Source: Paramacrobiotus metropolitanus
Lineage: Eukaryota; Tardigrada; Eutardigrada; Parachela; Macrobiotidae
Assembly (NCBI RefSeq): GCF_019649055.1
Contig: NW_026570253.1
Coordinates: 620,001 to 684,000 of the forward strand
Reading direction: 5' to 3'
Length of the DNA stretch: 64,000 nucleotides
The position numbers and the translations under genes were made by a program. Below the pieces are notes generated by a model that ran no database searches, was not told the origin of the DNA, and saw only the letters and a program-made list of their open reading frames with translations. Shown one piece after another: positions 9,853 to 58,758 of the stretch; the first letter of the stretch is position 1, and every line of letters starts with the position of its first letter.

Positions 9853-11086
<1,234 letters not shown>

Positions 11087-17972: not shown

Positions 17973-20900
17973 ATGACAACAGGAACTGCCGCACTGTATT
18001 TGAAAGACGGAAGCGTGTGGCATGGAAAGATTGCAGGGGCAAAGAAAAGCGTCGCCGGAGAAGTTGGTATGTGAAAATCAACTGTTTATCAGTCATCGAA
18101 GTCCTACGAACGACTTAAATCGGAAAAGATTATTTGAATCAAAAAGTCATTTACTTGAAGTAAAAACTGTACTGGTCAAAAAGCACATGCATGTTATTCA
18201 AGGATACTAATTTTCGGCACAGGATTTTCGCTTAGGCATATGCATGTCTGACGTACCCGTACGTGGAGGCACCTGCTTTGCGATTTGCAATGCTAAGGAA
18301 GATAATTATTGATTTACACAAGTACAATGCATATCGAAATTTTATTCCGCCCTACAACATGCGGTGATACCATTTTCGAAATCTTGTTCACTTATTCCTT
18401 AATTAATTTACTTTTTTGTAATCGATACACTTATCTGGAACTGACGCTTTTTTGTAACTTTTTTAACAATGCTGCATGCATGCATAGAATTATCTCCTGG
18501 TTCAAGCTGTCTGTATACAGTATTTCAAACCGGAATGGTGGGTTACCCGGAAGCCCTGACTGATCCATCGTATCACGGCCAAATCCTGGTGTTGACCTAT
18601 CCCATGATCGGAAACTACGGCGTTCCAGGCGATGATCTCAACGAGGAGCATTTCTCCAAGTGGTTGGAATCAGCCAGAGTGTGGGCTACTGGGTTGGTTA
18701 TCGGGGAACTGAGCAAGGAATTCAGCCACTGGAATGCTAAACGGTCGCTGCATCAGTGGATGGAAGAGAGCGGGGTTCCCATCATCGAGGGCATCGACAC
18801 ACGCGCCTTGACGATGAAGCTGCGTGAACACGGAACACTTCTCGGCAAAGTAAGTATTTTTTCGGCAAAAATTGCGTACCGCTTTACAGTGTTGACTCTC
18901 GGCTATCTTACGAACCAGATCATTGTGGGCGACGATCCCGTCGATGCCATTCCATTCATCGATCCAGATGACCGCAATCTGGTGGACGAAGTCAGCATTA
19001 AAGTAAGTGTCAGTAGGTGGTGTACCTGGTATTATTCTAAACAGGTAAGGCTGTTTATAATTAAAACAAAACGCTTAATTGGGCACTTTTTGTTATTCCA
19101 CTGCGAATTAAAAGCTTTGCAAACCCCGTACGAATAGCAGTACAGGTTTTGCATACAAAAATGTAGTGCTGCCAGTGTAAATGCGCTTTATCACACTTAC
19201 CAGAAATAAGCAGCCCCAATGTGCAGTTGAGAATGTGCGGCAATATTACAACGAACCAGAATATTGTCGGTATTTTGCACTCTTGCTCTGTTGTCCATGA
19301 TTTTGGAAGTATGTAATTTATTGGTTTATAATTTTTTTAACAGATGGTACAGATCTGTGTGCATTTTACGGTGCTGTAGCGCACGCCGTATATAGTCTGT
19401 GCGAGATTGGTAGAAGAAATCGAATTGACAGAAATGACCATGCAGCACTCAGCATGCACAGCAATATGCCAACACTAGAGTAGATCAGCGCTGCATTCAG
19501 AAATTAAACTGACTGGAAGAGGTGGTCAGTCGTTTTTATGTCGCTTTTTAGACACCATCACCACTGTACAATCCTCGCGGGAATCCAAAAATTCTGGCTG
19601 TTGACTGCGGATTGAAGTATAATCAACTGCGCTGTTTCCTCAAGCGCGACGCATTCGTGCAAGTTGTCCCATGGAACCACCCCATCCACAAGGAAATGGA
19701 CAACTTCGATGGACTATTCCTGAGCAACGGCCCCGGTGACCCCGCACTGTGCACAACGCTCATTGCGAACCTGGCCATGTACATGCAGAACCCCCAGTGT
19801 AAACCGGTGTTTGGCATCTGTATGGGACATCAGATTTTGGCGTTGGCCGCTGGTCTGAAATCGTACCATCTCAAGTACGGCAACCGCGGACATAATCAGC
19901 CATGCGTCCACAATGGCACCGATAAGTGTTACATAACCAGTCAAAATCACGGTTTTGCCATCGACACCAAGGAGATTACACATCCCTGGGAAATACTTTT
20001 TACCAACGCCAACGATGGCACCAATGAGGGGATTATCCATTCAGAGAAACCGATTTTTTCGTAAGTCCAGTTCACAGCATGAAAGTGACCTTTAGGTTGA
20101 TACCGATGTGTAAATTAGGATCAAAGGCGCTGCCATTCAAAACTTTTTGGCTGATTTACAATTTAACTGAATATTTTTTGGCTTTTACTGCATGTTCACG
20201 CTGTTAGCGATTCATTGCCGATACATAGATACCTATCGATTTACACGTAACAGATGCATACGCTGCATAAGCCTGTTTCCTGTTATTGGACGCAATCAAC
20301 ATCGGTTGTTTACGCGTTTTCTGGGTATGATGCCTGGTAACGATTTGAACTGGTAACCTTTGCTGCCGTAGGGTGCAGTTCCATCCTGAGCACATGGCTG
20401 GTCCCGCCGATCTGGAATGCTTGTTCGATTTATTCCTGCAGACAGTTAAGGATACAAAAAACGGCCACCCGCACAGTTTCCGGGAGCAGATCATTAGGAA
20501 GTTGCAGACTCCGCCGGCGCCCTGTCCTGTGACGGCGTTCAAGCCTCGCAAGGTGCTGGTGCTGGGCTCTGGTGGGCTGAGTATCGGACAAGCCGGAGAA
20601 TTCGACTACTGTGGATCGCAATGCATCAAGGCACTGAAAGACGAGGGCATCACAACGGTTCTCGTCAATCCCAATATCGCCACGGTGCAGACCACAAAAG
20701 GCATCGCTACGAAAGTGTACTACTTGCCGGTCACAGTGGACTATGTCGAACAGGTGACGCAAAATCTGACTGAATAATGCATTATTACACAAAACCGCTT
20801 GAACTACGAGTTTAATTTTGGTTGAGTGAAGCAAAAAAATTTAAAATAAAATGTAAATCTTCAACAGGAGCAGCTGCCGTACAGTAGTATACTATGTATT

Positions 20901-23900
20901 GTAGGTAGTATGTACAAGTACTCTGGGTAATCTTTAATATATAATATAATAATAATTATTACATAAGTTTTACTTCTCCCTCTTTCTACTGTAAACTGTA
21001 CAACATTATTACATGCATTAGTCGTATAGTATCATATTTGGTCTATCTGCGAGTATAACTTATAAGCTCTGCATTGACTGAAGATCTGGTGAGGTAAATT
21101 GTGTGTTGAAATAATTGAGCCATGAGAAATATTATCGTTCAGCCCTGTTGCGCCTTTTTTATTATGTTATAATTATTATTACATTTTTGATGGTTGTATT
21201 AATTTTATTTATATTTAATCATTCTTATGTTCGTAACCTCTTTGTGAATAAGAATCATACACTACATAACTACGTGCTACTCAGGTACTAACTTATACGA
21301 GCATAATAGTAAAAAGTATGCTATTCGTAATAACGTTTTGGGTGGGACATTTTATCTACTCGTAGGTGATTAGAACGGAACGACCAGATGGAATACTACT
21401 GAATTTCGGGGGCCAGACCGCTTTGAACTGCGGTGTCCAGCTGAAAGAGCAGGGCATTCTGGAGAAGTACAGTGTCAAAGTGCTGGGCACCCCGGTGCAG
21501 GTCATCGTCTGGACGGAAGACCGAAAACTCTTTGCCGACAAACTGGCAGAGATCGGGTACCGTGTCGCACCCAGTATGGTTGCCTATTCGTTGCAGGATG
21601 CCGTGGACGCAGCGCAGACCATCGGCTATCCGGTTTTGGTGCGCGCGGCGTATTCCCTCGGTGGTTTGCATTCGGGTTTTGCCAACAACGTCCAGGAACT
21701 GACGGAGATCGCCACGCGAGCGCTCTCGGTGTCGCCGCAGTTACTTTTGGATAAATCGCTGCGTGGATGGAAGGAAGTGGAATATGAAGTCGTACGGGAT
21801 ATCCATGACAATTGCATTACGGTGTGTAAAATGTATTATTTCTTACGCATTTTGCCACTTATAATTAAATGGATTTCTAACTTGACCCTTGGAGGGTCGA
21901 TGCGATAGTCTGTAGATAAAAATTCTTAAGCAAAACCGAACTAATAGTCACCCCTTTGCGATTTTTGGCAACCAAAGTACGTAGATTAGTAGTATAACGG
22001 TCAAGGAAGAAAAAATCTCGAATCTTGATCTAAAGTACTGTACATAGAACTTAGAAGTATACAAAGCATGCATATGGATGGTAAATTTTGAAGTTGGCTA
22101 AAAATGTAAAACAACAGCGTTGTACGTAGAATGGATGCATCGATAGAAATAATCGACCCAACGTTCATCGATAGAAATAATAAAAGCACCTAAAGAAGTG
22201 TTGAATTCATAAGCTGCCATCATAAATCATGACCTTCCATTGTCAGTCGCTAGAAGTACTAGTAACTAACAGTGATGAAGCAAACACAAAGAGAAATAAT
22301 TAAGTAACAATATGCAATTTCTTCTTTATGCGCTAAGTACAGTATTAAGCACGATATTATTATTTTCGAACAGGTGTGCAATATGGAGAACATCGATCCA
22401 TTGGGCATCCACACCGGGGAGTCGATTGTGGTGGCGCCCAGTCAAACGCTGACCAATGCCGAGTACCACCTATTGCGAACTGCGGCCATCGAGGTCGTTC
22501 GGCATCTGGGTGTGGTGGGAGAGTGTAATATTCAGTATGCGCTGAATCCGCAATCGCAGGAGGTCACTTACAGTACAGTTATTGAATTACTGATCTCAGT
22601 GTGCATCTTCTCGTGTTGGCTTTTCAGTTTTATGTGATTGAAGTCAATGCGCGACTGTCGCGTAGCTCCGCCCTGGCCAGTAAAGCCACTGGATATCCGT
22701 TGGCGTACATTGCAGCCAAGCTGTCCATTGGGCAGAGTTTGGTGGAGCTGCGCAATCCGGTGACGGGAGTAACGACAGCCTGTTTCGAACCCAGTCTGGA
22801 TTACTGTGTGGTCAAAGTGCCGCGGTGGGATTTGAGGAAGTTTCCCGGCGTCAGCACCAAGGTGACCCAACAAATGCCTTAAAAAAGTTCATATTTGGGA
22901 GTTTTTCGGATGGAATGGCACTTAGTATGCTGTTTTTTTTTGCATGCAACATAAATTTGTTGATTTTCGTGAGTTTCATTCGTGTAGCACTAGAATTACA
23001 TAAATATATTCATTGCTACACAAATTGTTGACCATGATTAAATTTTGATGATAGTGTTTGTTACACCGTATTTTTGTTAGATTGGAAGCGCCATGAAGAG
23101 CATCGGCGAAGTGATGGCCATCGGTCGTAATTTCGAAGAAGCGTTCCAGAAGGCCTTGCGCATGGTGGACGAACACTACGCCGGCTTTGAACCATATGTC
23201 GAGGAACTTTCTGACGATGTAAAAGAATCCTGTTTGCTTTGGTAACCGCAATAAAATTAAATTTTCCAGGAGCTGAGTAACCCCAGCGACCGACGGATCT
23301 TCACCGTGGCCACCGCCTTGGCGGAGGGCTACACCGTGGACCGTCTACACGAGCTGACGCGAATTGACCGCTGGTTCTTGTACCGCATGAAGAACATCAT
23401 CGACTTCCGCCAAGAACTGCGTACGAAGGTGGCTCAGTCGCCCAGCCGCAGTCTACTTCTGTCAGCTAAAAAGCTGGGCTTCTCTGATGCCCAGATTGCT
23501 AAGCTGGTGCGTAGTACGGAGCAGATCATCCGCAACATTCGGCTAGAAATGGGTGTCCATCCATGGGTCAAGCAGATTGATACGGTGGCCGGCGAGTGGC
23601 CGGCTTACGCCAACTATCTCTATTTGACATATCATTCGCAGCAGCATGACGTGATGTTTGACGCGAAATCTTCTGCTGTAATGGTGCTCGGATCTGGTGT
23701 TTACAGGTAAAAGCGCGATTTTTGAATGGTTCTCTAAAAGCAGCATCATTTTCTAAAATTTACGGTAAATGCAGCAGTTCATCGAGAACCTTTGAAGACT
23801 ACTCGTAGTACTTGACACAAACATTTTTTCAAAATATAACTACAAGCGTCCGTCTGCCGTGAACGTAATATGGCATCTCGAATACGCGCAATAATTAGTT

Positions 23901-26900
23901 TAACCAAATAATGTAAATGAAAAATTATTGTTTAAAATAGCTATGATTTCTTTGCAACAGGATCGGAAGCAGTGTGGAATTTGACTGCTGCGCAGTCGGT
24001 TGTCTGCAGGAACTACGCCGGCTTGACCGTTCGACGATAATGGTCAACTGCAACCCGGAAACGGTCAGCACCGACTACGACGTCTGTGACAAGCTGTACT
24101 TCGAAGAGATTTCCCTGGAAGTCGTCATGGATATTTATCAGCTGGAGAATCCGGAAGGAATTATTTTGTCCATGGGCGGGCAACTGCCGAACAATATCGC
24201 TATGGATTTGTACCGGCAGAACGCTGTCATACTGGGAACCAGTCCCGAGTCAATCGATAATGCCGAAAACCGTTTCAAGTTTTCCCGACTGCTGGACAGT
24301 ATCGGAATCGAGCAACCAAGGTTGGTCGGAAACGTTTGTAATGTGTCATTTTACCGTTAAGAAAGCAAATTGTTTCTTAATGAAAGTTGATTTCATTGCT
24401 CGTAAATGCTCAGCGACCATCGTATGAGTTGGTAAGACTATCTCATAAGTTCAGTTTTTAATTACAGGCTACATTGAAACAATAAAAATATAAAACGTTT
24501 CGGTGAACAGTTATTGCGGCTTTCGGGCCAAATGCAGTAACACCTACTAAATGCTTTATTTACAAATGGATAAATATTCTCGGTTAACATTGCTCTACAT
24601 AATTATGTAATTGAAATCAGAGTTTTATCTTATGGCTTGTTTTCATGATCAGATGGAGCGAATTGACCAGCATCGAAAGCGCCAAAGAATTCGCCAACGA
24701 AGTCGGCTACCCTTGCCTAATCCGTCCCTCATATGTCCTTAGTGGCGCCGCCATGCAAATCGCCTACTCCGTTAGCGATTTGGAAGAATACCTGAACAAA
24801 CCAGGCACCATCATCAGCCGTGATCGACCCGTGGTCATCTCCAAATTCATCGAGAATGCCCAGGAAATCGATGTGGACGCCGTGGCGGCACAGGGCGAGG
24901 CCATCTGTATGGCCATCTCGGAACATGTGGAGAATGCCGGCGTGCACAGCGGAGACGCCACACTGGTCACTCCGCCGCAGAGCCTGTCGTGGGATATTGT
25001 CGAACAGATCCGGGATATTGTGGAAGCCATTGGGGATGAGCTGGAAATCAGTGGACCTTACAACTTGCAACTAATGCTCAAAGTAAGCCGAAAGGTCACG
25101 CAGACAAGAAGCGTTTTACGTTGGATGAATCAAAAATATTTGCTGGCAAATACTTGTTTAATGAGTACAAAAATAAAAGATGTAAACCTTTTTAAGCAAT
25201 TTTGTGCATTACTGAATAGTCGGGGGACTAAAAATTGATGTGCAACTGTCATAATATTAGGTGAGTTCTCCTTGTTGTAGGATAACAAATTAATGGTCAT
25301 TGAATGCAACGTTCGTGTCTCTCGTTCCTTCCCCTTCGTGTCGAAAACCCTGGACTACGACTTTATTGCGGCGGCCACCCGCGTCGCTCTGGGCATTTAC
25401 GTGGACTCTGCAGACGTGACTTTCGGTCAGGAGAATCGCATCGGCGTCAAAGTGCCCATGTTCTCCTTTTCCCGCCTGACCAATGCCGACGTGACCCTGG
25501 GTGTGGAGATGCGCAGTACCGGCGAAGTGGCCTGCTACGGGACCACCAAGTACGAAGCCTTCCTCAAAGCGCTGATCGGCAGCGGCTTCCGCTATCCCCG
25601 TCAGAACATCTTCCTGGGCATCAGCAATCCGGATCACCGGAAACTCCTGACCAACAGCGTCAAACTCTTACAGTCACTGGGGTACAAACTCTACGCCAAC
25701 ACCGGGACAACGGAATACTACAAAACCACTCATAGCATCCAGTTAGAGGAAATTGTGTGGCCGACGGATGGATCGGAGGCGGCGCTAGCCAAAACCTTTG
25801 ATTTAGCCATCAGCATCCCCACTCGCCGGGGAATGACACCGCGACTCTCCATTGACAGCACCCATGGCTACCGTCTCAGTCGGTTGACCGCTGATTTCGC
25901 CATCCCGCTCATCACCGACGCCAATTGTGCGCTGATCCTGGCGGAGGCCCTCACCGCTTTCCCCAAACCACCGCCGTTGCGTTTAAGCACCGATTTCGTC
26001 ACCACGCGCCGGCTGTACCGTTTCCCGGGACTCATTGACGTCCACGTGCATCTGCGAGAGCCGGGCGCTACGCATAAAGAGGATTTCGCCAGTGGGACCG
26101 CTGCGGCGTTGGCCGGCGGGATCACGCTGGTGTGCTGTATGCCCAACACCAATCCCCCGGTGACGGACGCGGAATCCTTGGGTTTGGCGAAGGCAGCAGC
26201 GGAACGCGGTGCCCGCTGCGATTATGCGCTGTTTGCCGGGGCTTCGGTGGACAATGCGGCGACAGTCAGCCAGTTGGCGTCGCAGGTGATGACCTTGAAG
26301 ATGTACCTTAACGACACATTTACCACGCTGAAGCTGGACAATATGGCGCTATGGGGACCGCATCTGGCCGGGTGGCCGAAGTCCCGACCGATTTGCGTTC
26401 ACGCAGAGAGCAGTACACTGGCGGCGGTTTTGTTCTACGCGCATCTGTACGATCGTCCGGTGCACATCTGCCATGTGTCCAACAAACAGGAGATTTTGTT
26501 GATCCGCGAAGCCAAACAGAAAGGGATGAAGGTCACGTGTGAAGTAGCCCCGCATCACCTGTTCCTCAGTACGGAGCAGCTGGCGACGTTGGGGAAACGC
26601 GGCAGTGTCAAGCCACCGCTGGCCACGCCCCAGGATCAGGCGGCGTTGTGGGAGAATCTGGACGTGATTGACTGCTTCGCCACGGATCATGCGCCGCATC
26701 TGCTGAGTGAGAAGGACGGAGAGCACAGTCCGCCAGGATTCCCGGGTTTGGAGACGATGCTGCCGCTGCTGTTGACGGCGGTGGCGGACGGACGGCTGAG
26801 TCTGGAAGATATTGAGACGCGGTTGTGTACGAATCCGCGGAAGATTTTTGATTTACCGGTACAGCCCGATACGTTTGTGGAGGTGGATTTGGATGAGGAG

Positions 26901-29250
26901 TGGGTGATCCCCGAGAAGCAGGAGTGGACTAAGGCCGGCTGGAGCCCGTTTGCCGGCATGAACGTTCGTGGAAAGGTACTGAAACATTTTTCTATATAAA
27001 CAGATCTTGCTAAAAATGCTAAGAAAAGGGATGTTATCTATACAAAACAATAAATTTAATCAAAAAATCGTTGAAACGTCCTAATGGTTAATTACCAGTG
27101 AGTGAGTGTCGGCTATGTGAAATGGATTTAACAGTAAAAAAGAATGTGTTTTGTTATGTAAATCGGTTGTTTTGTTGTGGAATATCCGTTGTGTTTTGTC
27201 AGGTTCAACGAGTTGTCTTACGCGGTGAGGAAGTGTACATCGACGGCGCCGTTCTTGCCCAGCCCGGCTACGGCAACGACGTGTGCAAGGACACCATGGG
27301 CACACGCCCCATTAAACCCGTCTCGATCGTCATCTCACCCGCCATCAGCACGGAGGCGCCTCGTTTCCGCTCGCGCACCTCCACCCGCGAGCGCACCGAG
27401 TCGGCGCCCCAGGATGAAACTGCCGCAGATTACGCCGATGACCATTATCCCGATACCCTCCTAAAACCGATTGTCCCGCGTAACCCCAAACGCGGTTCTT
27501 CCGCCCCGGGCCGCAAGAGCATTTCCTTCGTCACCAGTGAGGAAGCGGCCACGGCGCCAGCTAAACCGGCCACAACGGTCAACCAGCGCCGCCCCACCAC
27601 TTTTATGCCGCACGAGGAACTCATGGCGCGCCGGCAGTCGCGGTTGTCGGTGGATTTCGGCATTTCGGATGTGGCGGGTGGCGCCTACGGAGGTGCAGTG
27701 CATATGCGACGCTCCTCCATGATCCCGCCGCCGATGGCCGAGGCGCTGCCCTTCCACTATCTGATCTGCGTGGAAACCTTCACGCAGCAGCATATTGAGC
27801 ATTTGTTTCGCTTGGCCCGCTATTTCAAGACTTGTGTGCAGAAGAACCGACCCACAGGACACGTGTTGAGCGGGAAAATTCTGGCAAATTTGTTCTATAC
27901 GGAGGACTTCGGAAGCCAAAATGCGTATGCAAGCGCCATGCACAGGTGACTTTTGTGACTACTTTTACCTATTAGCGTTTAAACAGCTGAAAAATGAAAA
28001 CGATAACTACTATTTTTTCCCACAAGAAGTAATTGCTAAGAATTTCTGAGCACTAAAGTAAATGAAAAATGAAAAGATTTTTGTCGATGACGACAAAAAT
28101 CGATGTCGATGTCGATATATCGATGTCGATATATTATTAGTCGATGTTTATAGACTGGGCGGATCGGTCATCTACATGAATCCCGCCACGTCGTCAGTGA
28201 AGAAAGGTGAAAGTCTGCACGATACGGTGATGATTATGTCAAGTTATGCCGATGTAGTGGTGTTGCGACAGTCGTACGAGAATCCGTTGGAGGTTGCTGG
28301 CTGGTGTCAGCAAAAACCGTTCATTAATGCGGGCGACGCGGTATGTGTTTCGGGATAAAATACGTTTGCCACCCATAGGATGTTGTACATGTAACCTGAC
28401 GTGGAAAAATTCCTGCTAAGTACAAAACGGTAGTGTTATCCACATAAAAGTTTATGCGTATAATTGTCACAATAAATTTAACCAAAGGCTAATTGTGAGT
28501 CAATGTGAGAGGTGGGCTAAAAGGGGGTTAGGCTAATTGACTTGCTAATTGATTTTTTATGATGACTTTGTTATACGTACATGTTGTTCTGACAATATAA
28601 CTCACCGGTTTCTTGTTGGACAGTCTGGCGAAGATTTTGTGCAAGCGCTGGTTGATGGTTTCACCATCTGGGACGAGATCGGTACCATCCGGGGCTGTGT
28701 CGTCACCCTGTCCGGCAACCTAAAGAGCGGCCCGGCGCACTCGCTGGCTAAACTGCTGGCAAAATGCCAGGTCGGTGAGCTGCGCTACGTGGCACAGGAA
28801 CAGTGCGACATGCCGGAGGAGGTCAGCCAGTATATCGACGAACTGCACACCACACCGCAGCGTCTATTCACCAGTCTGGAGGAGGCCCTGCCGGAGACCA
28901 ACATTCTGTACATGGCGCCGCTGTACAACACCGGAACGGACGCTGCTGAACACCGTCGTCTGTCGCTGACGCCGGAGCGCATGACGCTGGTCAAACCGGA
29001 ATCGCTGACTGGGCCGAAATTCCGCATTCTGCATCCGCTGCCCCGTCAGCATGATATTGCGCCGCAGATTGATAAGGATTCACGAGCGGCCTACTTCCGG
29101 CAGGCGGAGAACGGGGTGTACGTGCGGATGGCCATTCTGGCTGTGCTGTTAAAGGGGCTGATTGAGCGGCGCCCCTCGGAAACTACGGAGCGGACACTGG
29201 CTAGTTTCCGCCGTCGAATGAGTTCGCATTCGTCCAGGAAATCGGAATGA
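17973..29250 (+). CDS. CAD: CAD trifunctional pyrimidine protein with degenerate ATCase domain
   Basis: Sixteen exons: 17973-18066, 18521-18849, 18919-19002, 19552-20060, 20372-20753, 21366-21821, 22374-22562, 22628-22861, 23081-23218, 23270-23706, 23961-24320, 24653-25082, 25281-26975, 27203-27945, 28154-28340 and 28624-29250. All phases join, giving 2,297 residues (human 2,225). Order: glutaminase (about 1-360; FGICMGHQ nucleophile, QFHPEH), CPS (about 390-1450; [34 protein letters not shown], then the second half with [12 protein letters not shown]), dihydroorotase (about 1455-1790; [12 protein letters not shown], Lys in LKMYLND, HICHV, DHAPH all present), a Ser/Arg-rich linker, and an ATCase-like domain (about 1960-2297). 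The ATCase part keeps [18 protein letters not shown] and [11 protein letters not shown] but lacks the STRT, HPTQ, HGRT and TRxQ residues. So steps one and three of UMP synthesis look intact and step two does not. The donors at 22563 (GTCACT) and 24321 (GTTGGT) are weak. A possible poly(A) signal ATTAAA lies at 29330-29335. Confidence 0.95.
27904..29172 (+). other. Degenerate aspartate transcarbamylase active-site segments within CAD
   Basis: Sites where catalytic residues are replaced. DFGS at 27905-27916 (about residues 2014-2017) stands where the family has STRT, without any gap. EDFVQ near 28630-28644 replaces EHPTQ. GNLKSGP at 28714-28734 replaces the GDLKHGRT segment with one residue fewer. 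APLYNTG from 28915 replaces TRIQKER. The 80s-loop Ser and Lys (SSVKKGES), the Arg of VVVLR, the Gln of DFVQ and HPLP remain. In ATCases the lost residues bind carbamoyl phosphate and aspartate. Confidence 0.88.
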
Positions 29251-30950
29251 GTGGGATAGTACCGGTGGACGCTTGTCTACCAGCATGGCGCAGTCAGTTT
29301 TCATCGAAAATTTCGTTGCGAAATATTCCATTAAATTTTATTCGTGAATTTTATTCACCGGTGTTTTAATTTTAATGTCTTTTATCCGCTCGCAAGTCCT
29401 GTCTATTTTGCATTATTATCTTTCGGTGCATTTATTTAGCAATAATGTCAGTTACAAGCACTTCGCGATGTACTGTAAATGTTAGCTTGAGCGTACCGTA
29501 GAATGTGCATTATTTGCTTAATGATTAATATTGACTATGATTAATTTAGTGAAAATTCACTTCTAAATATGCTCTTAATTGCACAACTACTGTACAAGTT
29601 CTGTACTGGTAATCAATGTTCCATTGCTTGTGAAATTTGTTGTAACAAAATCATACTTAATTCTTTTCCAATGAAGCGCCCTTATCATGTGGTTGAAAGT
29701 GGTTTTGCTAGGGATATTATTGAGTGTGCATTAATTGCTTCTACAGTAGTGTCTGTGAACAGCACTCGTTCGGTATTTCCCGCGTTTATCGGTTACGGGA
29801 ATCATTCCCGCTGACAAATTTAAAGAATGATATTGTACCTGTTCGTGTTGCACAACTCGCTTCAGAATCAAAATATTTACTGTGTATAACGTCATTACTG
29901 TCAAAAGAATTTCACAAGAGACTTTTCAGAGTGTTGTCGTTTTGATATCGGACAGCTGATGGCAGTCTTCGGATGGAATAAATTTTCATCGGCAGCTTAT
30001 GCATTCAGCTCTTTACGCCAACATCTACAAAACCAAATGCTGTTGGATCATGATTGTCTTAGCATGCGGGTACATCCAACAATACTTGGGCCGAAAACGA
30101 AAATGCAAACGTAAATTATGCTGTAGTTGCAAAATTAAAGAAGCCCCCATTCGAGAGAAATGACTTATGAACAGTAACTCCACTGATTTATGTAAGTGCA
30201 TTTGTATAGTGAATATCAGTCAACTGGTGGAACCATATGGTAATGCATATATGATCAATTCTTCAGTAGGAGTACTTTTACTTTTTATTACAAATAGCCG
30301 AAGGTAGATTTATATAGCTAGTATAACACTGTATCTACAGATTTCTACATCGATTATGTCCTGTTTTGGCCGATAGGCCTGCGCCGCTGCCGCAGGGAAT
30401 TGACTGCATTTAAAGTGATCATAGGGCGCGTAATGATATTTAAAATGATTAGCAGGCTGTTTGACAGTTGGTGATCCTGCCGCACAGCATGCAAAACGCC
30501 ACCCGTCGTTTGAACACAAAACACACGTCATTCAACGTTAAAATTTAATTAAGAAAACGCTTAAGACATATTACAACAACAATTAAAGCCATCGATTAAA
30601 CAATATTTAATGTGAGACAAACACGTATTTGCCCATTAAAAGCACTTCCATTCGGTACGAGAAACATCGTGTATACTGTATACAGTGCATGATAATGACC
30701 ATGTATAATAATATTATGCTCTGCATGTATTAATTGTACACCGGCATTTGGCTAATCAGCCAGCACAAAAGTGATTTCAGAAAACCAGTTGACAAGTTAT
30801 GAATAAACTGTTTTACAACACCAGTAATTCTGCTTGTAAATGCGGGGTTTTTTCCCGTGACCTTTTGGTTTTTTTTAACAAAATTATCCCCGGCTTGTTT
30901 ACATACTTGTGTTCTTTTTATTTAACCAGCCAGATTTAATTTGCAGCAAA
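29251..30950. other. Intergenic region between CAD and SLC22-like gene A
   Basis: About 1.7 kb, AT-rich. The left end should hold the CAD 3' untranslated region (ATTAAA at 29330-29335). Short open frames at 29569-29945 and 30310-30531 have no recognisable content. A pyrimidine-rich acceptor-like stretch near 30909-30929 and the bases up to 30950 probably belong to the 5' end of gene A. Confidence 0.4.
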
Positions 30951-33900
30951 ATGGTTCGCCGGCAATCTTTAATGAACATTCCGCCTAAATTGAAAGATGC
31001 CGATGATATTTTAAACATCCTGGGAGATCCCGGCATCTTCCAGACTATCCAGTTCACCTTGTTGATGTTGCAGTTTGTACCGATTGCCATGAATGACCTA
31101 ATGCCTATATTTTACAATATTCGACCGCTAGGCATTCAGATTCCATATTACGGAATATCGGATATCAATAATAATTCTTTCGTGACAGCTGATGACAATT
31201 CCTCGATGGGGTACGTTTATGTTAACCTGTCAGCTGCTTGCAACGCTATTCACTCTGGATTACCGTCTTCGAATTTCTCCTACGTATATCGAAATCGCCA
31301 GTGGTCAGTTATCGGAGAGGTACATCACTGAAAACATGCTTCTGATTTAATTTTCATCGAGAAAAGCAAGCAGTTGATGTGCTTTGGTTTTAGATGGATT
31401 TATTATGTGACAAAGCGTGGCTGGCAAATCTAGCGACAACAGTGTATTTTCTGGGTAAATCTCGCATTAAGTTCAGTTTACGTAATATATGCGCTGATAC
31501 CTACAAAATTGTACTGGTCCATTACTAGACTCCTTTGCGCGCATATATATAACTTTTGCATGAAATTATAGACGTCCTTAAATTAATGTATTGTTGGTAT
31601 TCAGTAGCTATATATAAATGGTTGATCTGCATGACTTGGATGGAATCATCGATGTATGTTACATTAATACTTAAAATAAACCGTGTGTGAAAACACAATT
31701 TTAAGGCGCCAGGGCGAAATCCTACATAGGGTAGTGAACTATATCGATGTGCAGGGCAAATCATTGGGTCACCGATTTTTGGATGGACTTCCGACAAATA
31801 CGGCCGAAGAAAAACCTTGATCCTCTCAAATATTGCTTATTCTTTGCTCAGCATTGGAGTAATTTTTTCAAGGGATATCATTTCCTTTTCAGTTTTGCGC
31901 TTCTGTGTTGGGCTGGCCAGACAGGTACAACACTCAAAAAGTCTGAATGCTGTCGGTCTGTATCCATTCATAACTTTCATAACTACTCTAGCAAATAATG
32001 CATTTGTTACTTAGGTAGTATTTAAGTAAACATAGAAGTAGTCTTTCTCTTTCGTACTTTGTATAATTTATTTTGGGAACATTCAGGGAGTATTTATTTC
32101 CATTAACTAAATGTGGGTCATGTTTAGTATTCTAACGTCTGTACATGTGCTAGAGAACATCTGACGTGATTTATGCCCAACTTTTTCAAATATTTTTGTT
32201 GACTGCGTTTCGTACTATGGAACAGGGGATGCACAGCGCATTTTTCGTGCTGATGATGGAATGGATCCAGTCACACCGGCGTGGCCCGTGGGCAGCCATC
32301 GCCCAATTCCCTTTTTCCGCCGGTGTGCTGCTTTTAGCATTATTCGGATATCTTCTCCAGAACTGGCATCATATGCAGATCGTTCTAGCTGTTTCAAATT
32401 TTACCGCCATAGGATTTTACTGGTACAGTACATTGATCGTAAAAATATGTGTAAAAATACAGGTACGTTATGCGCGCTCCGTTGTATGAGAACATCTGGT
32501 TTTCCAACACCGCCATACTCTGTACGTTAACCTATAAATAAGCGCGACGAGTTTTGTGGTAGAAAGTTGTACTGCAAAAACAATTAAAGTTAAAATATAT
32601 AAAAATAAAATAAATTGTTGCTTATGCAGAACTGTTCCAGTTTTTCCAAATTCTGGTACATTACTGCTCGTACAAGTGGAGAATATAATAATAATTATTA
32701 TTACATCCTGTAAAAAAACATTTCCGCTCTAATCTAAGAGCATGACATGACCTTTTGCGAAACATTAGGACGATAAATGCTTTAATTTTAGCTATGCGGT
32801 TGGATCTACTCTAGGCTGAATCCTACTGCCGTCATACTGCCGTCATACTGACTGGTATGAAAAAAAGTTTATTTACGGCGATTTATAAACATAAGAATAT
32901 AGGTCAAGCTTGACCAGTATCACGGCAGTAGAATTCAGTCTCGAGTAGATGCGACCGCATAAACGCTTAGGCATTTGTTAACGATCCAGGTTCGCTCCGG
33001 AATCGTTAAAGTGGTTAATTCTGCACCATCGTGCGACGGAAGCCCAGGACATCTGTAAGCATATCGCGCACTTTAACAACGTTCCCATATCCCGAAGTGA
33101 CCTTAAGGACATTGAAATCCTAGCTAAGAATCTACATTCCGGTGGCCAGCCTGTGCAGTCCCATTCTTTTATCGATTGCTTCCGGACGCCGTATGTCCGC
33201 ATATTCACCGTATTGTGCTGTTATATTTGGTAATTATCACAATATATTTCTATATTTAAATTATGTACAATTGGCACATTCGGTAAAGTAAGCAAGGTGG
33301 CGCATTATTATGCACAATGATAATGTTCAGATTATTCCGCGTACATAAGTACTCTAGCGAATGAAGCGCTGTTTTGGATTCAGGTTCGCCACGTTCTTCA
33401 CATACTTTGCCTTTTCTTTTCTCATGACAAACATGGTGGGCGACGTGTATACTAACCTGGCTATCAGCGGGTGCTTGGAGCTCATTCCGCGGGCATTAGC
33501 CGTCATTTCCGCTCAAAAGTATGAATTTAGTATTTGTAGACAGCGTAGTTGCAAGATACGTACAGTGATTTATACATTCCACAATATGCTATAAAATCGT
33601 TATTTTATTCTTTGCCTGTGATACAGTTGCTATCGGTTTCACTATAAAACAGCAATACAGTAATTTGCCAAGTGTTTTGTCGACGTAGAAACGTTGTGCA
33701 GATCCTGCATAATTATTTAGAAAGAGAATTGTCCGAAAGTTATAAATTTTCATAAAAATAGATAGATTATTGTGTATATAATGAGTGATCCAAAGTAATT
33801 TTTTCGAGGAACGTTTGTTATTACCAATACGAGTATTATTATCCTGCATTATGAAGGATCACCAACCGTGCCATGCTGGTGACGTATTTCTTCTGGGCCG

Positions 33901-34477: not shown

Positions 34478-35522
34478 TGAAAACCGGCGAGCGTTTACCG
34501 GCAACAAATCAGGAGCCATGAAACAACTTTCTGTCAAATGTTATCGTTGTAAATATATAGATATTTCGCCTGTGGGTTCAGTCCTACGATAGGTGCAACT
34601 GCAAGGTGTAAATGATAACGCAGATGCTAGCTTGTATGTGTGTTTTAATGTCACCTCCCGGAGGAAATTTTAGATTTATTGTTAAAGTTAGTTTTTTGTC
34701 ATAACTTACGTAAATCATGCGTAGAACTATTTATGTCTACATGAAGGATGGCATCCTTAATTACGCGTGTACGTATTCAGTAATTCAACAGGGCCATTGT
34801 AATTACCGAAAAATCACAAAAACGTCTTAACTTATTTAATTGTAGTACTCAAATCATTTTTTAATTTTCTACAACCGTTTGTCATGCCATCCTGATGCTT
34901 AATTTCCTTTTTACATGGACTAATGTTTATGCCTTTGAGATAGTTCTGGGGTACATAGTATAAGTATAATTACTGGCTGAAAAAAATAGACGAGTATTTC
35001 TTCGCACTTATGCTCGTATAAGACAATATGCGCGTTATCATCGGCACAGTAGTCGCTCTAAAAACCATTCTCGTTTTACGACGCTGAATCCTGCTGTATT
35101 ATCAACCACTTGCGGTTTATCTTTCTTTCAGCGGCTAATAAAACCGTTTTATATTTTGGAAATTTATTTGGATGTGGCGGTCAGAATACTCGTTTGATAC
35201 AGTTAAACAAAATTATACTGACTATGAATACTCCACAATGTTATATTGCATTGGTCACCGCTCGTACACAACTGGGTAAATTGTAAGTCAGTAAGTGCTT
35301 TCCCAGTTTGTCAAAAACAAACCCTCTCGCCCACAATTAAACGCTCATGCGGGTTTCTGGCATGAAATGTGTTCTTTACATAGCTAATCGAACAAATAAT
35401 TTGCGTCTAACCATTCCTCTGATAGAAATTATCAGCAGTAATATCCCTGGACAACATAATTAAATTTTGCACAAATAATTGCGTATTACAGTAGGAACTG
35501 CTACTGCGGTTACTGCGGTACA
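34478..35522. other. Intergenic region between carriers A and B
   Basis: About 1.0 kb of AT-rich sequence. It has no open frame above about 60 codons and no repeat I recognise. It must contain the 3' end of gene A and the promoter of gene B, but neither is marked by a clear motif. Confidence 0.35.
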
Positions 35523-38500
35523 ATGGCCGATCCGCTGATCCAAAATCCCGATGATATCCTGTACTTCTTGGGTGATCCCGGCCGATTTCAGATTCTCCAG
35601 TTTATTCTGCTAAGCTCGCAGTTTATACCAATTGCCATGAATGACCTTATACCGATTTTTTACAATATACGCCCAGTGGGATTGTATGTCAACACCCTTA
35701 ATGAGACCCGTGACAATTATTTAGGAGCGCAATATTACAATCTGTCGACGGCCTGCACACTTTTGGGACAAAGGAATTTCGCGCAAACTGACCACTTGTA
35801 CGTGTACGCTTCACCCAGGCAGCGCTCAGTGGTTGGTGATGTAAGTAAATAACTGTACTAGTAGTGTAACAAAATCAGGATTGATAACAACGGAAATGCT
35901 GGAACAATTATCGTTTGTTGAATATCAAGCGTTCCACAGTACCTACGTAATATTACGATGATGAGATAATCGTTGCCAAGACAAGATGCATTCAAAAAAA
36001 TTAAGTGCAATAGCAGGCAGAGTTTGCAGCAGCGTACTATTGTAAACAGATGTCATATTTGCACAAATTAATTAATACCGTACACCGGTTTATGTATGAG
36101 TAATCTGAAGCGGGTTTTCCATACAAATTAAGTCACACAATTGTTTACTCAGGTTTGCATACATGATACGACATATTTTAAACAAGGCAGAAATACCAAA
36201 ATAATATTAATCATTAGTGCACTGATGCATGCCCTAAGAAAGCCCAAATACTTTCTATAGTGTAGAATATAAAAAAATAAAATACAGAAAGTTCCTGGAA
36301 AGACGTATAACTTCAGTAAGCGATAAATACGCCGACAATACTAGTACTCTGGCAGCTTTCAGTTTCAACCGACTGTGGAACTATCTACCGCCTATTTTTC
36401 GCACTCACCTGGTCAGCTTATCCTTTACCTAAAATACCTTTTTTTTGGCTAATTTAAATTAGCGTTATTTCTTGGCAATGCACACTTTATCATTGCAGAA
36501 CTACATACCATAATCATTTTTAATTAATAAAGTTACATGTAAGAATACCGCACTTCATGCGTGTGCAAGTATGTTGGCGGTACGTGCAATATGTAGCGGT
36601 GCGTGCAATATGTAGCGGTGCGTGCAATATGTAGCGGTCTCTCAAATCATGTCATCAAGAGTGAGAAGTATCCCAGCGGCTTAGCGATGCTACAAGGTAT
36701 ATCTCCAGGACCGCACTTTTCTTTCTTCCAAAATTTTAAAGCGAAATGTTTAACGCAGTATACAGATATCTCATGTTTATGTATATTTTTGTACGGTATA
36801 CTACGAAATTAAATCAAACTAGATACGAAGTACAACCTTCCATAGTGTACGTGTAGACAACAATAATTAATATTAAGAAAAGTTCTTTTACTAACGTACT
36901 CATATCTTGTCATACAAAAGCCGTCGCGTGCGAGAATAAAACAGGCTTCGACCACTAAAAGCAAATTCTGCAACTTACTATTTATTTACTGTAAGCAGAA
37001 TTAGACAATTTGTGTTACGAATCCATATTACCATGGCCAGAAGAGCTTTTCTTGGTTACCATATATTGCAGATGGACTTGGTTTGCGATAAAGGATGGCT
37101 CGCGAATTTGGCCACTGCAATTTACTTTTTTGGTATGTACGAGGACGAACGATTTACTTTTTACTTTATTGGATTTTAATTTTTTGGTATGTACGAGTAC
37201 GAACTACGAATACTACGAAGTATGGATGTTCTATCAAGGTTATAGCAGAAAATTCATGAAAGGTTAATTATAAACCATGATCATGACGGTACTAGAGTAT
37301 ATTTGGCACCACTTTGGTAAAATAGTTTTAGATACAAGTATTCTAAGGAGAGCATTTTCTTCGTGATACTTTTGTCTGAAATATTTATGTGCATGTAGGT
37401 TGGCATAAGGCGTTATGATTTATAAATAAACGCGTGTCTAGCGCTTACGTTAAGTAACCGTTAAATAATTGCAATTCTTACGTCGAAGTTGCTATTGTAC
37501 AATTCCTTAAAGTGCCCAAACACAATTAATATTGTTGTTTCTTATAAAGCTGTGCACATGTAGAAATCTATTTTCATACCTTACACGCTGACAGGATCTT
37601 TATAGGACAAATAATTGGAAGTTTTGGCTTTGGAGTAATATGCGATCGCATTGGCCGAAGAAATCCACTGCTGTTTTGCAACGGTATGTGATAGCAGTCA
37701 TTAGAAATTAACATTATACAGTAACGCAATATGATACCCTGATTCTTATATTAGCCATCTTTGAAATGAATAATGACACTATTTTTTTATAGTGCTGTTT
37801 TCCGCTCTTAACGCCGGATTAATATTTTCCGCCGATTATATTTATTACGCGGTATTTTTATTCTTCATTGGGATTAGCAGACAGGTACAACAGAATAACG
37901 AACATGCATGCTGTACAGTACCAAGCACATGAAGGTTTAGTTGCTCGTGCTATTCGTTTAATACGGAAAAATCAAATTATATTCGTACACATAAAAAACT
38001 GAATGCATAAGTAGCAACTGAAGTTACCTATCTGTGTACAATACATTACAGTAAGTGTATGCCTGCAAAAGTTAATTAAACACCATGATCGTGTTAACTA
38101 AAGAAAAGTCATTGTTTATAATAATTGGGCTGCTTGTGTTTGTGATTAATATAGGGGATGCATAGTTCGTTTTTTATTCTAATGATGGAATGGATCCAGC
38201 CCCGGCGTCGCGGTACATGGGCAGCCATAGCGCAGTTTCCCTTTTCTTTGGGTGTTCTACTCTTAGCGCTAACAGGCTATCTGGTGCAGGACTGGCGCAA
38301 AATGCAACTTGTGTTGACCGTATCAAACTTTACGGCATTAGCATATTACTGGTAAATGGTAATTACTTTTTCGACATGGAGATTCCGTCTCGCAGTTTAA
38401 TAAACCTGCACATGTAGCAATTGCCCTTCAGAATAAACATAGGAGTGTTTCCGCTATTATTTTTTGCTTATCTCGCACTTCGCGCTGCTCCACTGCATAA

Positions 38501-46103: not shown

Positions 46104-47113
46104 CACAATTTTATCACTAATCGTTTCTTTTGTCTTTCCAGCAAATTGGCTATCAACATCCTCCAGCTAATAATTAAATATTCTTCACAAATTTAAGACC
46201 AGCGCCACGACCGGAAATATGTATAATGTACATATTATTGTTTTTCATTTTTCGGTATAATCGCCAAACAATAAAATGACTGACAGCCAAGTGCGGTTAT
46301 ATCGCCAAAACCGGCAGCTAATCGGTGTAAAAACTCTCGCATAAATAAACATACCAAATTATTGGCAAAGCTGCGATAGCGATCATAAAAAGCCGGCATT
46401 TTCTGCTGGCGGAATTTGTCACTCTAGTTTCTCGCCAAAAAGAAGGCACGAGTACGCTGGAATAATGTTGTACAGATACATGTACTGTATATTTATACAT
46501 CAGTTACTTGTACTTGTACATGTACAAGATACGATATAGATATTCCATCGACCAAATAATTTTGTACGTGACATACGAATAGTAGAAGCCAGCTTCAAGC
46601 CACCTGTTAAATTATTGTTTTTTTAATTCTTAAGCGTGCTGGCTTAACAATGGTCGTTTTGAGTACAATAACAAACACCGGCAATTATTACTCCTCTTCA
46701 CTTTTATGCAGCGCGAGGGCGTACATGCGAAGACGCCGATGAATTACACGTGAGGTGTACAATGGAATATAAGTGAACTGGCATTATATGCTGAAACCTA
46801 TGCTGAATAAGCATACACATGTGCCACAGTTAAGCGACGTTTATTGTTTCGTCCAAAGAATAACACAACTACCAGTTTCTTGTCATACAGCAAGTAATAT
46901 CGTGATAACACCTCGCCGCTTGTGCCGATCCGACTATAGTCGTATTTCCGGTGCAACGCAGCAATTCTACAAACAACGAGCATGTGCGCGATATCTGATA
47001 AAAGTCAGGTTAAAACGAATTCGCATAATGCACGCCTTGATAATGCGCTTTAATACATTGTCACACCGTCGGCTTGTGCATAACTTACTTCTGTTTTTTA
47101 ACTATTTATAATC

Positions 47114-50100
47114 ATGTCAGCAATGACTAAATTAAATGATCCCGATGACCTCTTGTATTTGCTTGGCGATCCGGGACTGTTCCAGATTATTCAGTTTATG
47201 CTATTGGCATGTCAGTTTATACCGGCTATGATGAGTGATTTCATGCCAATATACCATAACATTCGTCCCAGGGCTGTCAGAATCCCGGAACAATTTTCTT
47301 CAACTTTAGACAATGCATCATTAATGGCGGGAGAAAAGAAAATGTATAACCTAAGCAGTTTTTGTGAGTTCTTTCCTGATGTGAATGCAGAAAATGCCGG
47401 CTTGGAGTATGTTTATGCCGACCGTCAATGGTCAGTGGTTGGAGAAGTGAGTACGGTAACTCACCCTGCGGGGCACTCACACAAAAACGGCAGATACAAT
47501 ATTAATGTCTGCAAAGTGTCAGATATATACCGGTAATCATGTAATAATCACGTAAGTATTGAACATATTTTGTGCCACAAACATATTTTTCGACACCTTC
47601 GTTTTTCATTTTCCGCTTCAGTAGACCGAAAAGGGAGTGGGTTTTTGATGTTTATTAATGTTTAAAATTTTTTTACGCAGTGGGACCGCGGAAGCTTCTT
47701 TTACTGTTGTGATGGTTGTTAAAAACGATGACATTACGCTGCAGCCGTAATATTTTACCGTAATATTAGTGTAGCTCAGTAAAGAAGTACACTGAGAAGT
47801 TGCGAACGGACTACGTAACAAGACCTAAACTAAAATATTTGTTCTAGGTTTATATCCTACTTGCCATCAGAGGGCATCATCCTAATGCTGTCTTAGAATG
47901 CTGTTTTTGTCATAGTTTTAAGGAATTATTTATTTTCTGAACTTCTTTCTAGATGGATCTCATATGCAAAAGATCTTGGCTTCCAGAGTTTGCCACAACA
48001 ATATATTTTTTGGGTATGCAATCACCAGCAATTTATTTACGATTTTAAAAGAAATTGTCTCAATTCTTTTCATAAAGTCAATCACAAAGCGTGAAGTTTT
48101 GTAACAGTAGGTTATCTGATTTCAGGACAGATCGCAGCCAGGTACGATATCGATGGAACTCGATTGATATTTGAGTTAATAATTTTTTCATGGTTGAGAA
48201 AAAGTTTTGTTTATCTGATTTATCTATAATCATGGCAAATACATACACACGTATAGAAGTATAAGTAATACTATGCACGTAATAATTGCACAAATCGAAT
48301 CTGTTTCAGTCCTGTTTGTGGTTTTATCGCCGATAAATACGGACGCCGGCCAACCGTGCTGGTTTGCAATCTGATGTTCACATTATTTGCCGTGTCTATG
48401 GCCTTCTCCTATTACTATCCCATCTTTGTAATCTTGAGTTTTTTTCTCGGATTATTCAAGCAGGTAAGCAATCGAAATTCTATAGTTTTCAATCAACTGA
48501 ACATTTAATAAATATTATTTGCTTATAAGGATAGTGTCATCGCTTTCCCTATATAGATATTACCTGGTTTCTTTCAAAGGTGAATCTAATTTCAATCTAA
48601 ATAAAGCCTACCAAATTCTGTATGGTTGCACTGCTTAGTCAGGCGCTATGCACTACAGTTTGTATATCTAAATCTAATATCATCTATGCAACATATTATT
48701 AATGTTATCTAATCTAACGGCATTTATGTACATTTTTAAGGGAATCCAAGCTACTTCGGTGATATTGATGATCGAATGGATACAGCCGAAACGACGTGCC
48801 ATTTGGTCTGCCATTGCACAGTTTCCCTTTTCCTTTGCTGTCATAATATTCGCCGGCACCGGCTACTTTCTGCGGAATTGGCGTTACATTCAAATCGTGG
48901 TTGGCTTGTCAAATTTCACGGCCCTGGCATTTTATTGGTAGGTGAAACACTTTATTGCATATACAACAACAAAGCCGTTATCGGCATATATAACCTACAG
49001 TCAAGTTTGCAATATTGAATCGGCACAATTATTAAACAGTCAAAATAAATGAACTCAAAATTATAATACGAGACTCATACATGTATTTATGTGATTAATA
49101 AGAAGCTGCCAGTACTAAATTTGAATTTCGCCAGGTTTGCCCCGGAATCTCTACGATGGCTGATTCTTCACGGCAGGCAACATGAGACTCGGAAAGTGTG
49201 CGCTAATGTGGCAAAATTCAATGGAATTTCTCTAGGCGACGATCAGCTGGACGAGATCAATCACATTTCCGCCAAACGTGCACCGGCTACTGCTGCTGCA
49301 CCGGCTGCATCCCAGTCGTTGTTTGTCTGTTTTAAGACCAAATACCTAAGACTGTTCACGCTGATGGGATGTTTCTTATGGTACGTGTAGAGTTATTATT
49401 AGGCTTGCAGCCAATGATTAAAACTAACGTCCATGCGTATATCAGTAGTTGTCCATTTAAATAATAACCGAAAAGGTCATCCGTCTGTTACTCCAAGCGT
49501 TAATGCTGACCTGGCCAATGCGCATTTGTATATAACATATACTGTTAGATATTTTTACTTTTAGTAAAAGCATTTCTTTGAAGGATGGCCACCTTTTTCG
49601 TGTATTTTTCCTTTTCCTTCTTGGTGGCCAACATGAGCGGAAGCATTTACCTGAACATAGCCATCAGCGGATGTATGGAGCTTATTCCGCGCTCTATTGG
49701 AATCTTTATGGCCAAAAAGTACGCATATGTAAAGAACAGCAAAATTAAAGTTTACTATATTTTACAAGATCACCAAAGTTGCACATGCAGTATACCTGTG
49801 GCATGGTCATCCAATGCAAATGTCACATGCTTCTAATCAAGTGATTGTGCTGACGAAGCACGTCAGAGGGTATCCGAATCAAAATTAATTCGTGCATTTA
49901 AATGAGTATTTTTTATGTCCGCGACTCCGCACTCGTACCGCGCTAAAAATTAATTCGGATTGCACATGTGTTTTGCAGGTTCACAAACCGTGCTTCGTTA
50001 TGCGGCTATTTTGCCGTCGCCGGTGTATTGGCGATAATTGCCGGAGTACTGCCGGAGCAGCACGGTGTCGTGCAAACGGTGCTGGCACTGTTGGGCCGCA

Positions 50101-57821: not shown

Positions 57822-58758
57822 CGGATACAGGACCGAATTCTGAGGGGAACAAATCGGTAATATAATGAATTCGTTTAGTACAGAATTCAGCAATCAAAGC
57901 AGCAAACCATGCTACATTCTTTGATACAACGACATAACCGTACGTACGGTGGCATGATGTCTGCTCGCGCAGTTGGTAATCTGTTTATTCATCGTCAGTG
58001 ATTTCCAGGCGGAACTAAACACTGAAGAGCTGCAGCCGGAAAAGATATGGCGATGCATAACCGAAGCCAGCATAACTGAATTAACGAGATTCGCGGACTG
58101 CGAAAACCAAATACCGCAGTAGCGGGAGACCAGGGGTACTGCGCATCAGAACAGAAGCTCGTCAATGTATTTCTCGCAAGCTGGAGATTAACCGCATAGC
58201 AGCAGATGGAAACACAGAGACTCGAAGAAGAACGATCCTGTTGTCAGCAGTCCCAGTGTAGAGCACACACATTAGACAACGTCTTGAAAAATTGAAATAT
58301 GCCCCGAAAGTCTCACACCAGCTACATATCGCTGAATGACATTATATGACACTGATATTAAACCGTAACGTCTAATAAACTTGTTTTACAAAACTTACAA
58401 AAGAGCGAAAAAATTACGACCCCGACCATTTATTAACTATTACGTATCATTTTTATAACTCACCCCCCCCCCCATATGCGGCAGCGCTAATCCATGTTGT
58501 TGTTTGTTGAAATATAAAAATTTCTGTCAGAAAAGTGAAAACTTTGTTGTTTCGTTCTTCGTTTCATTTTTGTGTTTTTTCTTTCTAATATATTCTTGGT
58601 TACTTCCTTTATGTCAGTTTTAGTTGTGGATTTCTTTTTAACAACACTTTCGTTGTTTCTTTCCCTTTCCCTACTGCTTGCGAAGACTTCCTTATCTGTA
58701 CTGTACTATTATCCGGCGATCAACAGTACCCACCCAAACCTTTTAATCGGGAATCGGG
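57822..58758. promoter_or_regulatory. Divergent promoter region, UQCC1 / LDAH
   Basis: About 940 bases between divergent starts. Contains a run of about 13 C near 58462-58474 and a pyrimidine-rich tract at 58550-58690. The tract could be an intron end or 5' leader of LDAH. No clear core promoter motif. Confidence 0.3.

What the first reader, a model, noticed from the sequence alone, without database searches (positions are those of the whole stretch)
27203..29250. CAD with a pseudo-aspartate-transcarbamylase domain
Seen: an intact 16-exon CAD whose last domain aligns end to end with ATCase, yet has DFGS for STRT, DFVQ for HPTQ, a shortened GNLKSGP for GDLKHGRT, and APLYNTG for TRIQKER. Known: these positions bind carbamoyl phosphate (STRT, His of HPTQ) and aspartate (Arg of HGRT, TRxQ). 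Kept: [13 protein letters not shown], the Gln of HPTQ, HPLPR, and [11 protein letters not shown]. Inference: catalysis is lost while the fold is conserved, perhaps because the ATCase trimer holds the CAD hexamer together. Fungal Ura2 is the known opposite case, with a dead dihydroorotase domain. An animal with active CPS and DHO flanking a dead ATCase would need a separate ATCase, pyrimidine salvage, or a new use for CAD.
Basis: partly seen in the sequence, partly recalled or inferred. Interest (0 to 1): 0.92.

Follow-up and report, generated by a model that had tools for sequence, protein, structure and literature searches.

The report
Tardigrade CAD copy with dead ATCase
This animal, very probably a tardigrade, has two copies of the large enzyme that starts pyrimidine synthesis; the one in this window has lost the active site of one of its enzymes yet appears to be kept as a working protein, probably as a partner of the complete copy.

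Summary
Window 17973-29250 (+) is an open 16-exon CAD gene of 2,297 residues. Its ATCase domain has lost 8 of 12 own-chain substrate residues, including all of STRT, but keeps both residues that ATCase lends to the neighbouring subunit. The inference that the animal lacks ATCase is wrong: a second CAD with intact STRT, HPSQ, HGRT and TRIQ lies on contig C4, and no third transcarbamylase was found. The genome is very probably Paramacrobiotus metropolitanus TYO.

The window copy is not a dying pseudogene. Against the C4 copy, with human outgroups, rates in its GATase, CPS and DHO regions do not differ detectably; only ATCase is accelerated (64:21, p=3e-6). A decayed partial copy of its GATase/CPS-A part on C222 gives pairwise dN/dS 0.15, with 24 nonsynonymous differences assigned to the relic, 2 to the window gene and 14 unresolved. 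The aspartate-domain exon is predicted to fold as ATCase.

Best reading: a CAD paralogue whose dead ATCase is kept as a subunit of the CAD assembly, probably mixed with the complete CAD and lending it its carbamoyl-phosphate loop. It mirrors fungal Ura2, whose dead domain is DHO. Mixed assembly is inferred, not shown.

The parts
17973..29250 (+). CAD paralogue gene, 16 exons: 17973-18066, 18521-18849, 18919-19002, 19552-20060, 20372-20753, 21366-21821, 22374-22562, 22628-22861, 23081-23218, 23270-23706, 23961-24320, 24653-25082, 25281-26975, 27203-27945, 28154-28340, 28624-29250
   Evidence: Spliced alignment, two junctions (exons 1/2 and 6/7) corrected; 2,297 residues, one terminal stop
17973..20500 (+). 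Glutaminase (GATase) domain, GICMGHQ and [11 protein letters not shown] present; end approximate
   Evidence: motifs; alignment to human CPS1
20550..25700 (+). Carbamoyl phosphate synthetase halves A and B. Of 13 CarB ATP-site positions checked in half A, the 11 that are the same in E. coli CarB and human CPS1 are all kept; glycine-rich loop reads GGLHSG (CarB G178 is His) at 21660-21677
   Evidence: site list recalled; boundaries approximate
25998..26975 (+). Dihydroorotase domain; [11 protein letters not shown] loop, HAE, CHV and DHAPH present
27203..27750 (+). DHO C-terminal end and DHO-ATCase linker coded in exon 14
27755..27945 (+). Pseudo-ATCase, first part of carbamoyl-phosphate domain; STRT replaced by DFGS (within 27902-27919)
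28154..28340 (+). Exon 15: carbamoyl-phosphate loop SSVKKGES (28191-28214; S80, K84) and the D90 and R105 equivalents, all kept; window-only and C4-only differences 7:7
28624..29250 (+). Exon 16: aspartate domain; H134D, R167 lost, R229P, Q231Y; Q137, P266, L267 and R269 kept; AlphaFold2 pLDDT 91.8, best PDB match human CAD ATCase

Best explanation
The window gene is an old CAD paralogue in a genome that also holds a complete CAD. Shown by sequence: the ATCase active site is lost on the own-chain side; the GATase, CPS and DHO regions evolve at rates not detectably different from those of the complete copy; the carbamoyl-phosphate loop that works in the neighbouring subunit and the D90/R269 pair are kept, and the aspartate-domain exon is predicted to fold as ATCase. 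Inferred: the dead domain is retained as an ATCase-trimer subunit, so that the protein can enter CAD hexamers, most likely mixed ones with the complete CAD. There it would add CPS and DHO capacity and lend its loop to an intact neighbouring site. Because no other transcarbamylase was found in the genome, carbamoyl phosphate made by this protein would have the complete CAD's ATCase as its only known transcarbamylase consumer, which favours working together.
For: Second CAD on C4 with intact ATCase and no third ATCase/OTCase. Own-chain residues kept 4 of 12, neighbour-donated 2 of 2, versus 12 of 12 and 2 of 2 in C4 (site list from PMC4581275 Table 1, passages). Relative rates, window-only:C4-only: GATase 28:36, CPS-A 31:21, oligomerisation 10:7, CPS-B 21:18, DHO 27:31 (p 0.21-0.75), ATCase 64:21, p=3e-6. 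Selection on the GATase/CPS-A part: dS 0.167, dN 0.025 over 778 codons; nonsynonymous differences assigned 2 to the window gene, 24 to the relic, 14 unresolved. Fold: hydrophobic columns 80 of 89 (C4 86, human 85); exon 16 model pLDDT 91.8, matches 5g1n. Loop exon not accelerated, 7:7 versus 55:14 in the other two exons, p=0.04. D90 and R269 kept. ATCase trimers and DHO dimers are proposed to build the CAD hexamer, and mutations breaking either dissociate it (PMC9863657, passages).
Against: No expression, protein or assembly data. Only 2 residues are neighbour-donated, so their retention alone is weak, and 80 of the 83 references came from a scan in which the loop motif was one of two search patterns. 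The exon comparison was chosen after seeing the data. The substitution-score test is not discriminating: window-only changes outside the active site average BLOSUM62 +0.27 against a neutral simulation near -0.4, but the 21 changes of the constrained C4 copy average -0.24. Besides the substrate residues, 21 of 61 other conserved columns are also changed. The relic does not cover ATCase, so current constraint on that domain itself is not measured. CPS-A carries G178H in the glycine-rich loop, so CPS activity may be reduced. The first part of the ATCase domain (exons 14-15) was not modelled.
Confidence: 0.55

Rival explanations
1. The dead domain is only a homomeric scaffold: the window protein forms its own hexamers as a CPS plus DHO enzyme, and the products diffuse to and from the complete CAD.
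For: GATase, CPS and DHO look intact, with rates like C4 and purifying selection on the GATase/CPS-A part; the fungal inactive DHO-like domain keeps the homodimer (PMC9863657, passages).
Against: Retention of the neighbour-donated S80 and K84 has no catalytic purpose in a homotrimer without working own-chain sites.
Confidence: 0.2
2. The ATCase domain is in free decay: the gene is kept for CPS and DHO, and its last domain was inactivated recently and is on its way out.
For: ATCase is accelerated and 21 of 61 other conserved columns have also changed. If neutral only for the last part of the branch, an open frame could still be expected.
Against: Changes concentrate on the active site: 8 of 12 lost against 21 of 61 other conserved columns, one-sided Fisher p=0.04; hydrophobic columns, loop exon and D90/R269 kept; no stop or frameshift.
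Confidence: 0.15
3. The domain has a new ligand or regulatory role, for example binding a nucleotide in the remodelled pocket and controlling the complete CAD.
For: Radical replacements in the pocket (mean BLOSUM62 -1.0 over 7 own-chain sites); plant ATCase binds UMP at its active site (PMC7878868, passages); a dead paralogue activates deoxyhypusine synthase in trypanosomatids (PMC3663545, abstract).
Against: No positive sign of a particular ligand; the two arginines that contact UMP in the plant enzyme (R248, R310), which by role correspond to R167 and R229, are lost here.
Confidence: 0.08
4. Assembly or annotation error, or an alternative exon, explains the missing motifs.
For: None found; RNA reads were not available here.
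Against: Changes fall in three separate exons in one open frame; no alternative ATCase exon matched in the genome at E<=10.
Confidence: 0.02

Closest known systems
Animal CAD (human CAD)
   Same: Domain order GATase-CPS-DHO-ATCase; GATase, CPS and DHO signature residues; ATCase homology
   Different: ATCase own-chain catalytic residues lost in this copy
Fungal Ura2 / Chaetomium CAD-like protein
   Same: One domain of the polypeptide is catalytically dead but keeps its fold and presumably its oligomer role (PMC9863657, passages)
   Different: There the dead domain is DHO and a separate DHO enzyme exists; here it is ATCase and a second CAD with intact ATCase exists
Pseudomonas aeruginosa ATCase-pseudo-DHO complex
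   Same: An inactive homologue is needed for ATCase assembly and activity (PMC7053772, abstract)
   Different: Separate chains; the inactive partner is DHO-like
Trypanosomatid deoxyhypusine synthase with dead paralogue
   Same: Dead and active paralogues in one hetero-oligomer (PMC3663545, abstract)
   Different: Different enzyme; the hetero-oligomer is shown there, only inferred here

Membership tests
CAD | GATase, CPS, DHO and ATCase homologous domains in one polypeptide | tested here: met
CAD | GATase motifs, conserved CPS-A ATP residues, DHO metal and loop residues present | tested here: met
   11 of 11 CarB positions shared by CarB and CPS1 kept in CPS-A (site list recalled), G178H noted; CPS-B judged by motifs only
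CAD | Functional ATCase active site | tested here: not met
   8 of 12 own-chain residues lost; activity itself not measured
Transcarbamylase family (SxRT, HPxQ, HxLP motifs; PMC4581275, passages) | SxRT motif | tested here: not met
   DFGS
Transcarbamylase family (SxRT, HPxQ, HxLP motifs; PMC4581275, passages) | HPxQ motif | tested here: not met
   DFVQ; only Gln kept
Transcarbamylase family (SxRT, HPxQ, HxLP motifs; PMC4581275, passages) | HxLP motif | tested here: met
   HPLPR
ATCase equivalog TIGR00670 | Score over 236.95 bits | tested here: not met
   191.6 bits; the C4 domain scores 311.6
ATCase fold | Homologous fold | tested here: met
   Exon 16 model pLDDT 91.8, TMq 0.75 to 5g1n; exons 14-15 by sequence only
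CAD hexamer subunit | ATCase trimer and DHO dimer formation | not testable with these tools
   D90 and R269 equivalents kept, consistent only

The most novel reading that the evidence does not exclude
The two CADs have divided the work: the window copy has a dead ATCase but keeps the TF pair of the DHO catalytic loop, while the C4 copy has an intact ATCase but Asn at the human F1563 position of that loop. They would then depend on each other in mixed hexamers, each completing the other's weakened step, with the dead ATCase lending its loop to the live one.
Probability: 0.12. Interest if true: 0.8.

Novelty: new variant of a known kind. Interest (0 to 1): 0.55.

Why it matters
Fungi show that a CAD-like protein can keep a dead DHO domain. 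A dead ATCase inside a constrained animal CAD, beside an intact copy, would be the mirror case. It offers a natural test of whether ATCase is kept in CAD for assembly apart from catalysis, and of whether a multi-domain enzyme can split its activities between paralogues within one assembly. Searches of the open-licence library: (CAD, aspartate transcarbamoylase, tardigrade) found 0 papers; one search found 48 papers holding 3 of 4 terms, of which I saw 8 titles, none on this. Most subscription papers are not held, so this is not proof of absence from print.

Tried and rejected
Loss of de novo synthesis: rejected, since a CAD with intact ATCase exists and OMP decarboxylase and DHODH-family matches are present (several PF01180 pieces contain stops, not examined; OPRT not searched). 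Third ATCase, OTCase or separate DHO: none found; the tool warns that a missing match does not prove absence. A third CPS match on C222 proved to be a partial relic of the window gene. Retrocopy origin: rejected, 11 intron positions are shared by the two CADs (the C4 model's 22 introns may include an artefact near its first exon). Pairwise dS between the two CADs is saturated in five of six domains and 2.9 in ATCase (pS 0.73-0.85), so it gave only a lower bound on age. A first codon comparison with the relic used a frame off by one and its codon counts are discarded; replace it. An early spliced model from an incomplete template was replaced. Comparison with other tardigrades was not possible: no eukaryotic collection is offered here. 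Human F1563 mutant activities could not be read (paper not held). Literature searches (20 of 382 titles seen; 12 of 603 seen) listed nothing on a tardigrade or pseudo-ATCase CAD.

Full report
What is there. The window is C33:620001-684000 of a 169.8 Mb genome. A spliced alignment, with two junctions corrected, gives a CAD gene at 17973-29250 (+): 16 exons, GT-AG at every intron, Met start, one terminal stop, 2,297 residues. The genome is very probably Paramacrobiotus metropolitanus TYO. Its contig C1 is 4,484,719 bp and the total 169,799,020 bp in 533 contigs, with C533 at 10,170 bp; the published assembly has a longest scaffold of 4,484,941 bp and 170,483,395 bp in 684 scaffolds (PMC8277472, passages). 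This match is by size, not by sequence.

The ATCase domain. The substrate residues listed in PMC4581275 Table 1 (passages) were scored. Own-chain: S52D, T53F, R54G, T55S, H134D, R167 lost, R229P and Q231Y are changed; R105, Q137, P266 and L267 are kept; so 4 of 12 kept. Neighbour-donated: S80 and K84, 2 of 2 kept. The C4 copy keeps 12 of 12 and 2 of 2. Of 61 other columns conserved in at least 90% of references, the window copy keeps 40, C4 57 and human 59. The window domain fails the TIGR00670 cut-off (191.6 against 236.95 bits) while C4 passes (311.6).

A second CAD elsewhere. Searches of the whole genome with PF02729 and PF00185 found only this gene and one on C4:1136993-1138066. The one stop reported in a C4 match lies just past the exon end. 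The C4 gene gives an open CAD model of 2,279 residues with 0 stops, its two ends trimmed by the aligner. It shares 11 intron positions with the window gene, so the two arose by DNA duplication. Synonymous sites between them are saturated or nearly so (pS 0.73-0.85): the duplication is old. No other DHO was found. OMP decarboxylase and DHODH-family matches exist. The inference of an animal without ATCase therefore fails.

Which domains are constrained. With human CPS1 or human CAD as outgroup, window-only against C4-only differences are GATase 28:36, CPS-A 31:21, oligomerisation 10:7, CPS-B 21:18, DHO 27:31 (p 0.21 to 0.75) and ATCase 64:21 (p=3e-6). ATCase against the other five pooled gives p=1e-4. 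Detectable acceleration is confined to ATCase.

The gene is alive. A CPS search found a third match over the cut-off, on C222. It is a partial copy of the window gene from exon 4 to exon 10, introns included, with 3 in-frame stops and 4 exon indels, and without DHO or ATCase. Over 778 codons (3 more skipped for gaps) dS is 0.167 and dN 0.025. Polarised by the C4 residue, 24 nonsynonymous differences fall on the relic, 2 on the window gene and 14 are unresolved, stops included. Introns differ at 314 of 1,557 sites and exons at 125 of 2,342, so the relic itself was probably functional for a time; gene conversion is another possibility. The GATase/CPS-A part of the window gene is thus under purifying selection; this says nothing directly about its ATCase exons.

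The fold. Exon 16, folded with 46 of the 80 prokaryote loci, gives pLDDT 91.8 and pTM 0.82; the best PDB matches are human CAD ATCase, TMq 0.75, 43% identity. Exons 14-15 were not modelled. Of 89 hydrophobic columns 80 remain hydrophobic (C4 86, human 85). Changes are over-represented in the active site (8 of 12 against 21 of 61; one-sided Fisher p=0.04). Outside it, 55 window-only substitutions are milder than a neutral simulation (+0.27 against -0.42 and -0.47; 0 of 2,000 runs reached it at either base bias), but the 21 C4-only changes give -0.24, so this measure is weak. The exon with the carbamoyl-phosphate loop shows 7:7 window-only and C4-only differences, the other two exons together 55:14 (p=0.04); this split was chosen after seeing the data.

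Mechanism. The ATCase active site is shared between neighbours: the carbamoyl-phosphate loop of one chain enters the site of the next (PMC9863657 and PMC4581275, passages). The window domain has lost most of what serves its own site and kept what serves the neighbour's. It also keeps D90 and R269, the pair named in the title of a hamster ATCase study on oligomeric state (seen in a reference list; paper not read; numbering match recalled). ATCase trimers and DHO dimers are proposed to build the CAD hexamer. The simplest reading is a structural and loop-donating subunit, probably mixed with the complete CAD, whose ATCase is the only transcarbamylase found in the genome for its carbamoyl phosphate. 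Mixed assembly is inference.

Open points. The window CPS-A loop reads GGLHSG where C4 has GGQGSG, human CPS1 GGLGSG and E. coli CarB GGSGGG; the relic shares the change. The C4 DHO loop has Asn where human CAD has F1563, a residue described as crucial for catalysis (PMC9856072, passages); the window copy keeps Phe. E. coli and yeast have Thr there, so Asn may be tolerated. This leaves open a reciprocal division of labour.

Comparison with known kinds. It is homologous to CAD but fails the ATCase score and two of three transcarbamylase motif tests, so it is a CAD paralogue with a pseudo-ATCase, not a typical active ATCase. Fungal CAD-like proteins are the mirror case. Searches (0 papers; 8 of 48 titles seen) showed no report of this in the held library.

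Noticed in passing
G000 C222:13146-18227 (L090): Decayed partial copy of the window CAD (81-93% DNA identity by piece, introns included), exons 4-10 only; exons differ far less than introns, so it was probably functional before decaying.
   Followed up: yes
C4 CAD dihydroorotase, L005: Loop reads LNETN where human CAD has LNETF and the window copy LNDTF; could weaken DHO in the otherwise intact CAD.
   Followed up: partly
window 21660-21677: CPS-A glycine-rich loop GGLHSG instead of GGxGSG; shared with the C222 relic, so older than that split.
   Followed up: partly
window 17973-29250 and C4 CAD: Third-position G+C is 0.67 in the window CAD, tending to rise along the gene, against 0.53 in C4; the window DHO lies in one 1.7 kb exon where C4 has several introns.
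   Followed up: no
window 30879-31331, 35460-35852, 47102-47536: Three similar open frames (PIFYNIRP / PIYHNIRP) of a tandem gene family, no Pfam match in these frames; a transporter family is a guess from memory.
   Followed up: no
window 9853-10626 (-), 51405-52169 (-), 55334-55789, 58747-60177, 63403-63855: Neighbouring genes by Pfam: Ras-family GTPase, BTB_3 protein, CHCH-domain protein, lipid-droplet hydrolase, reprolysin-type metallopeptidase.
   Followed up: partly
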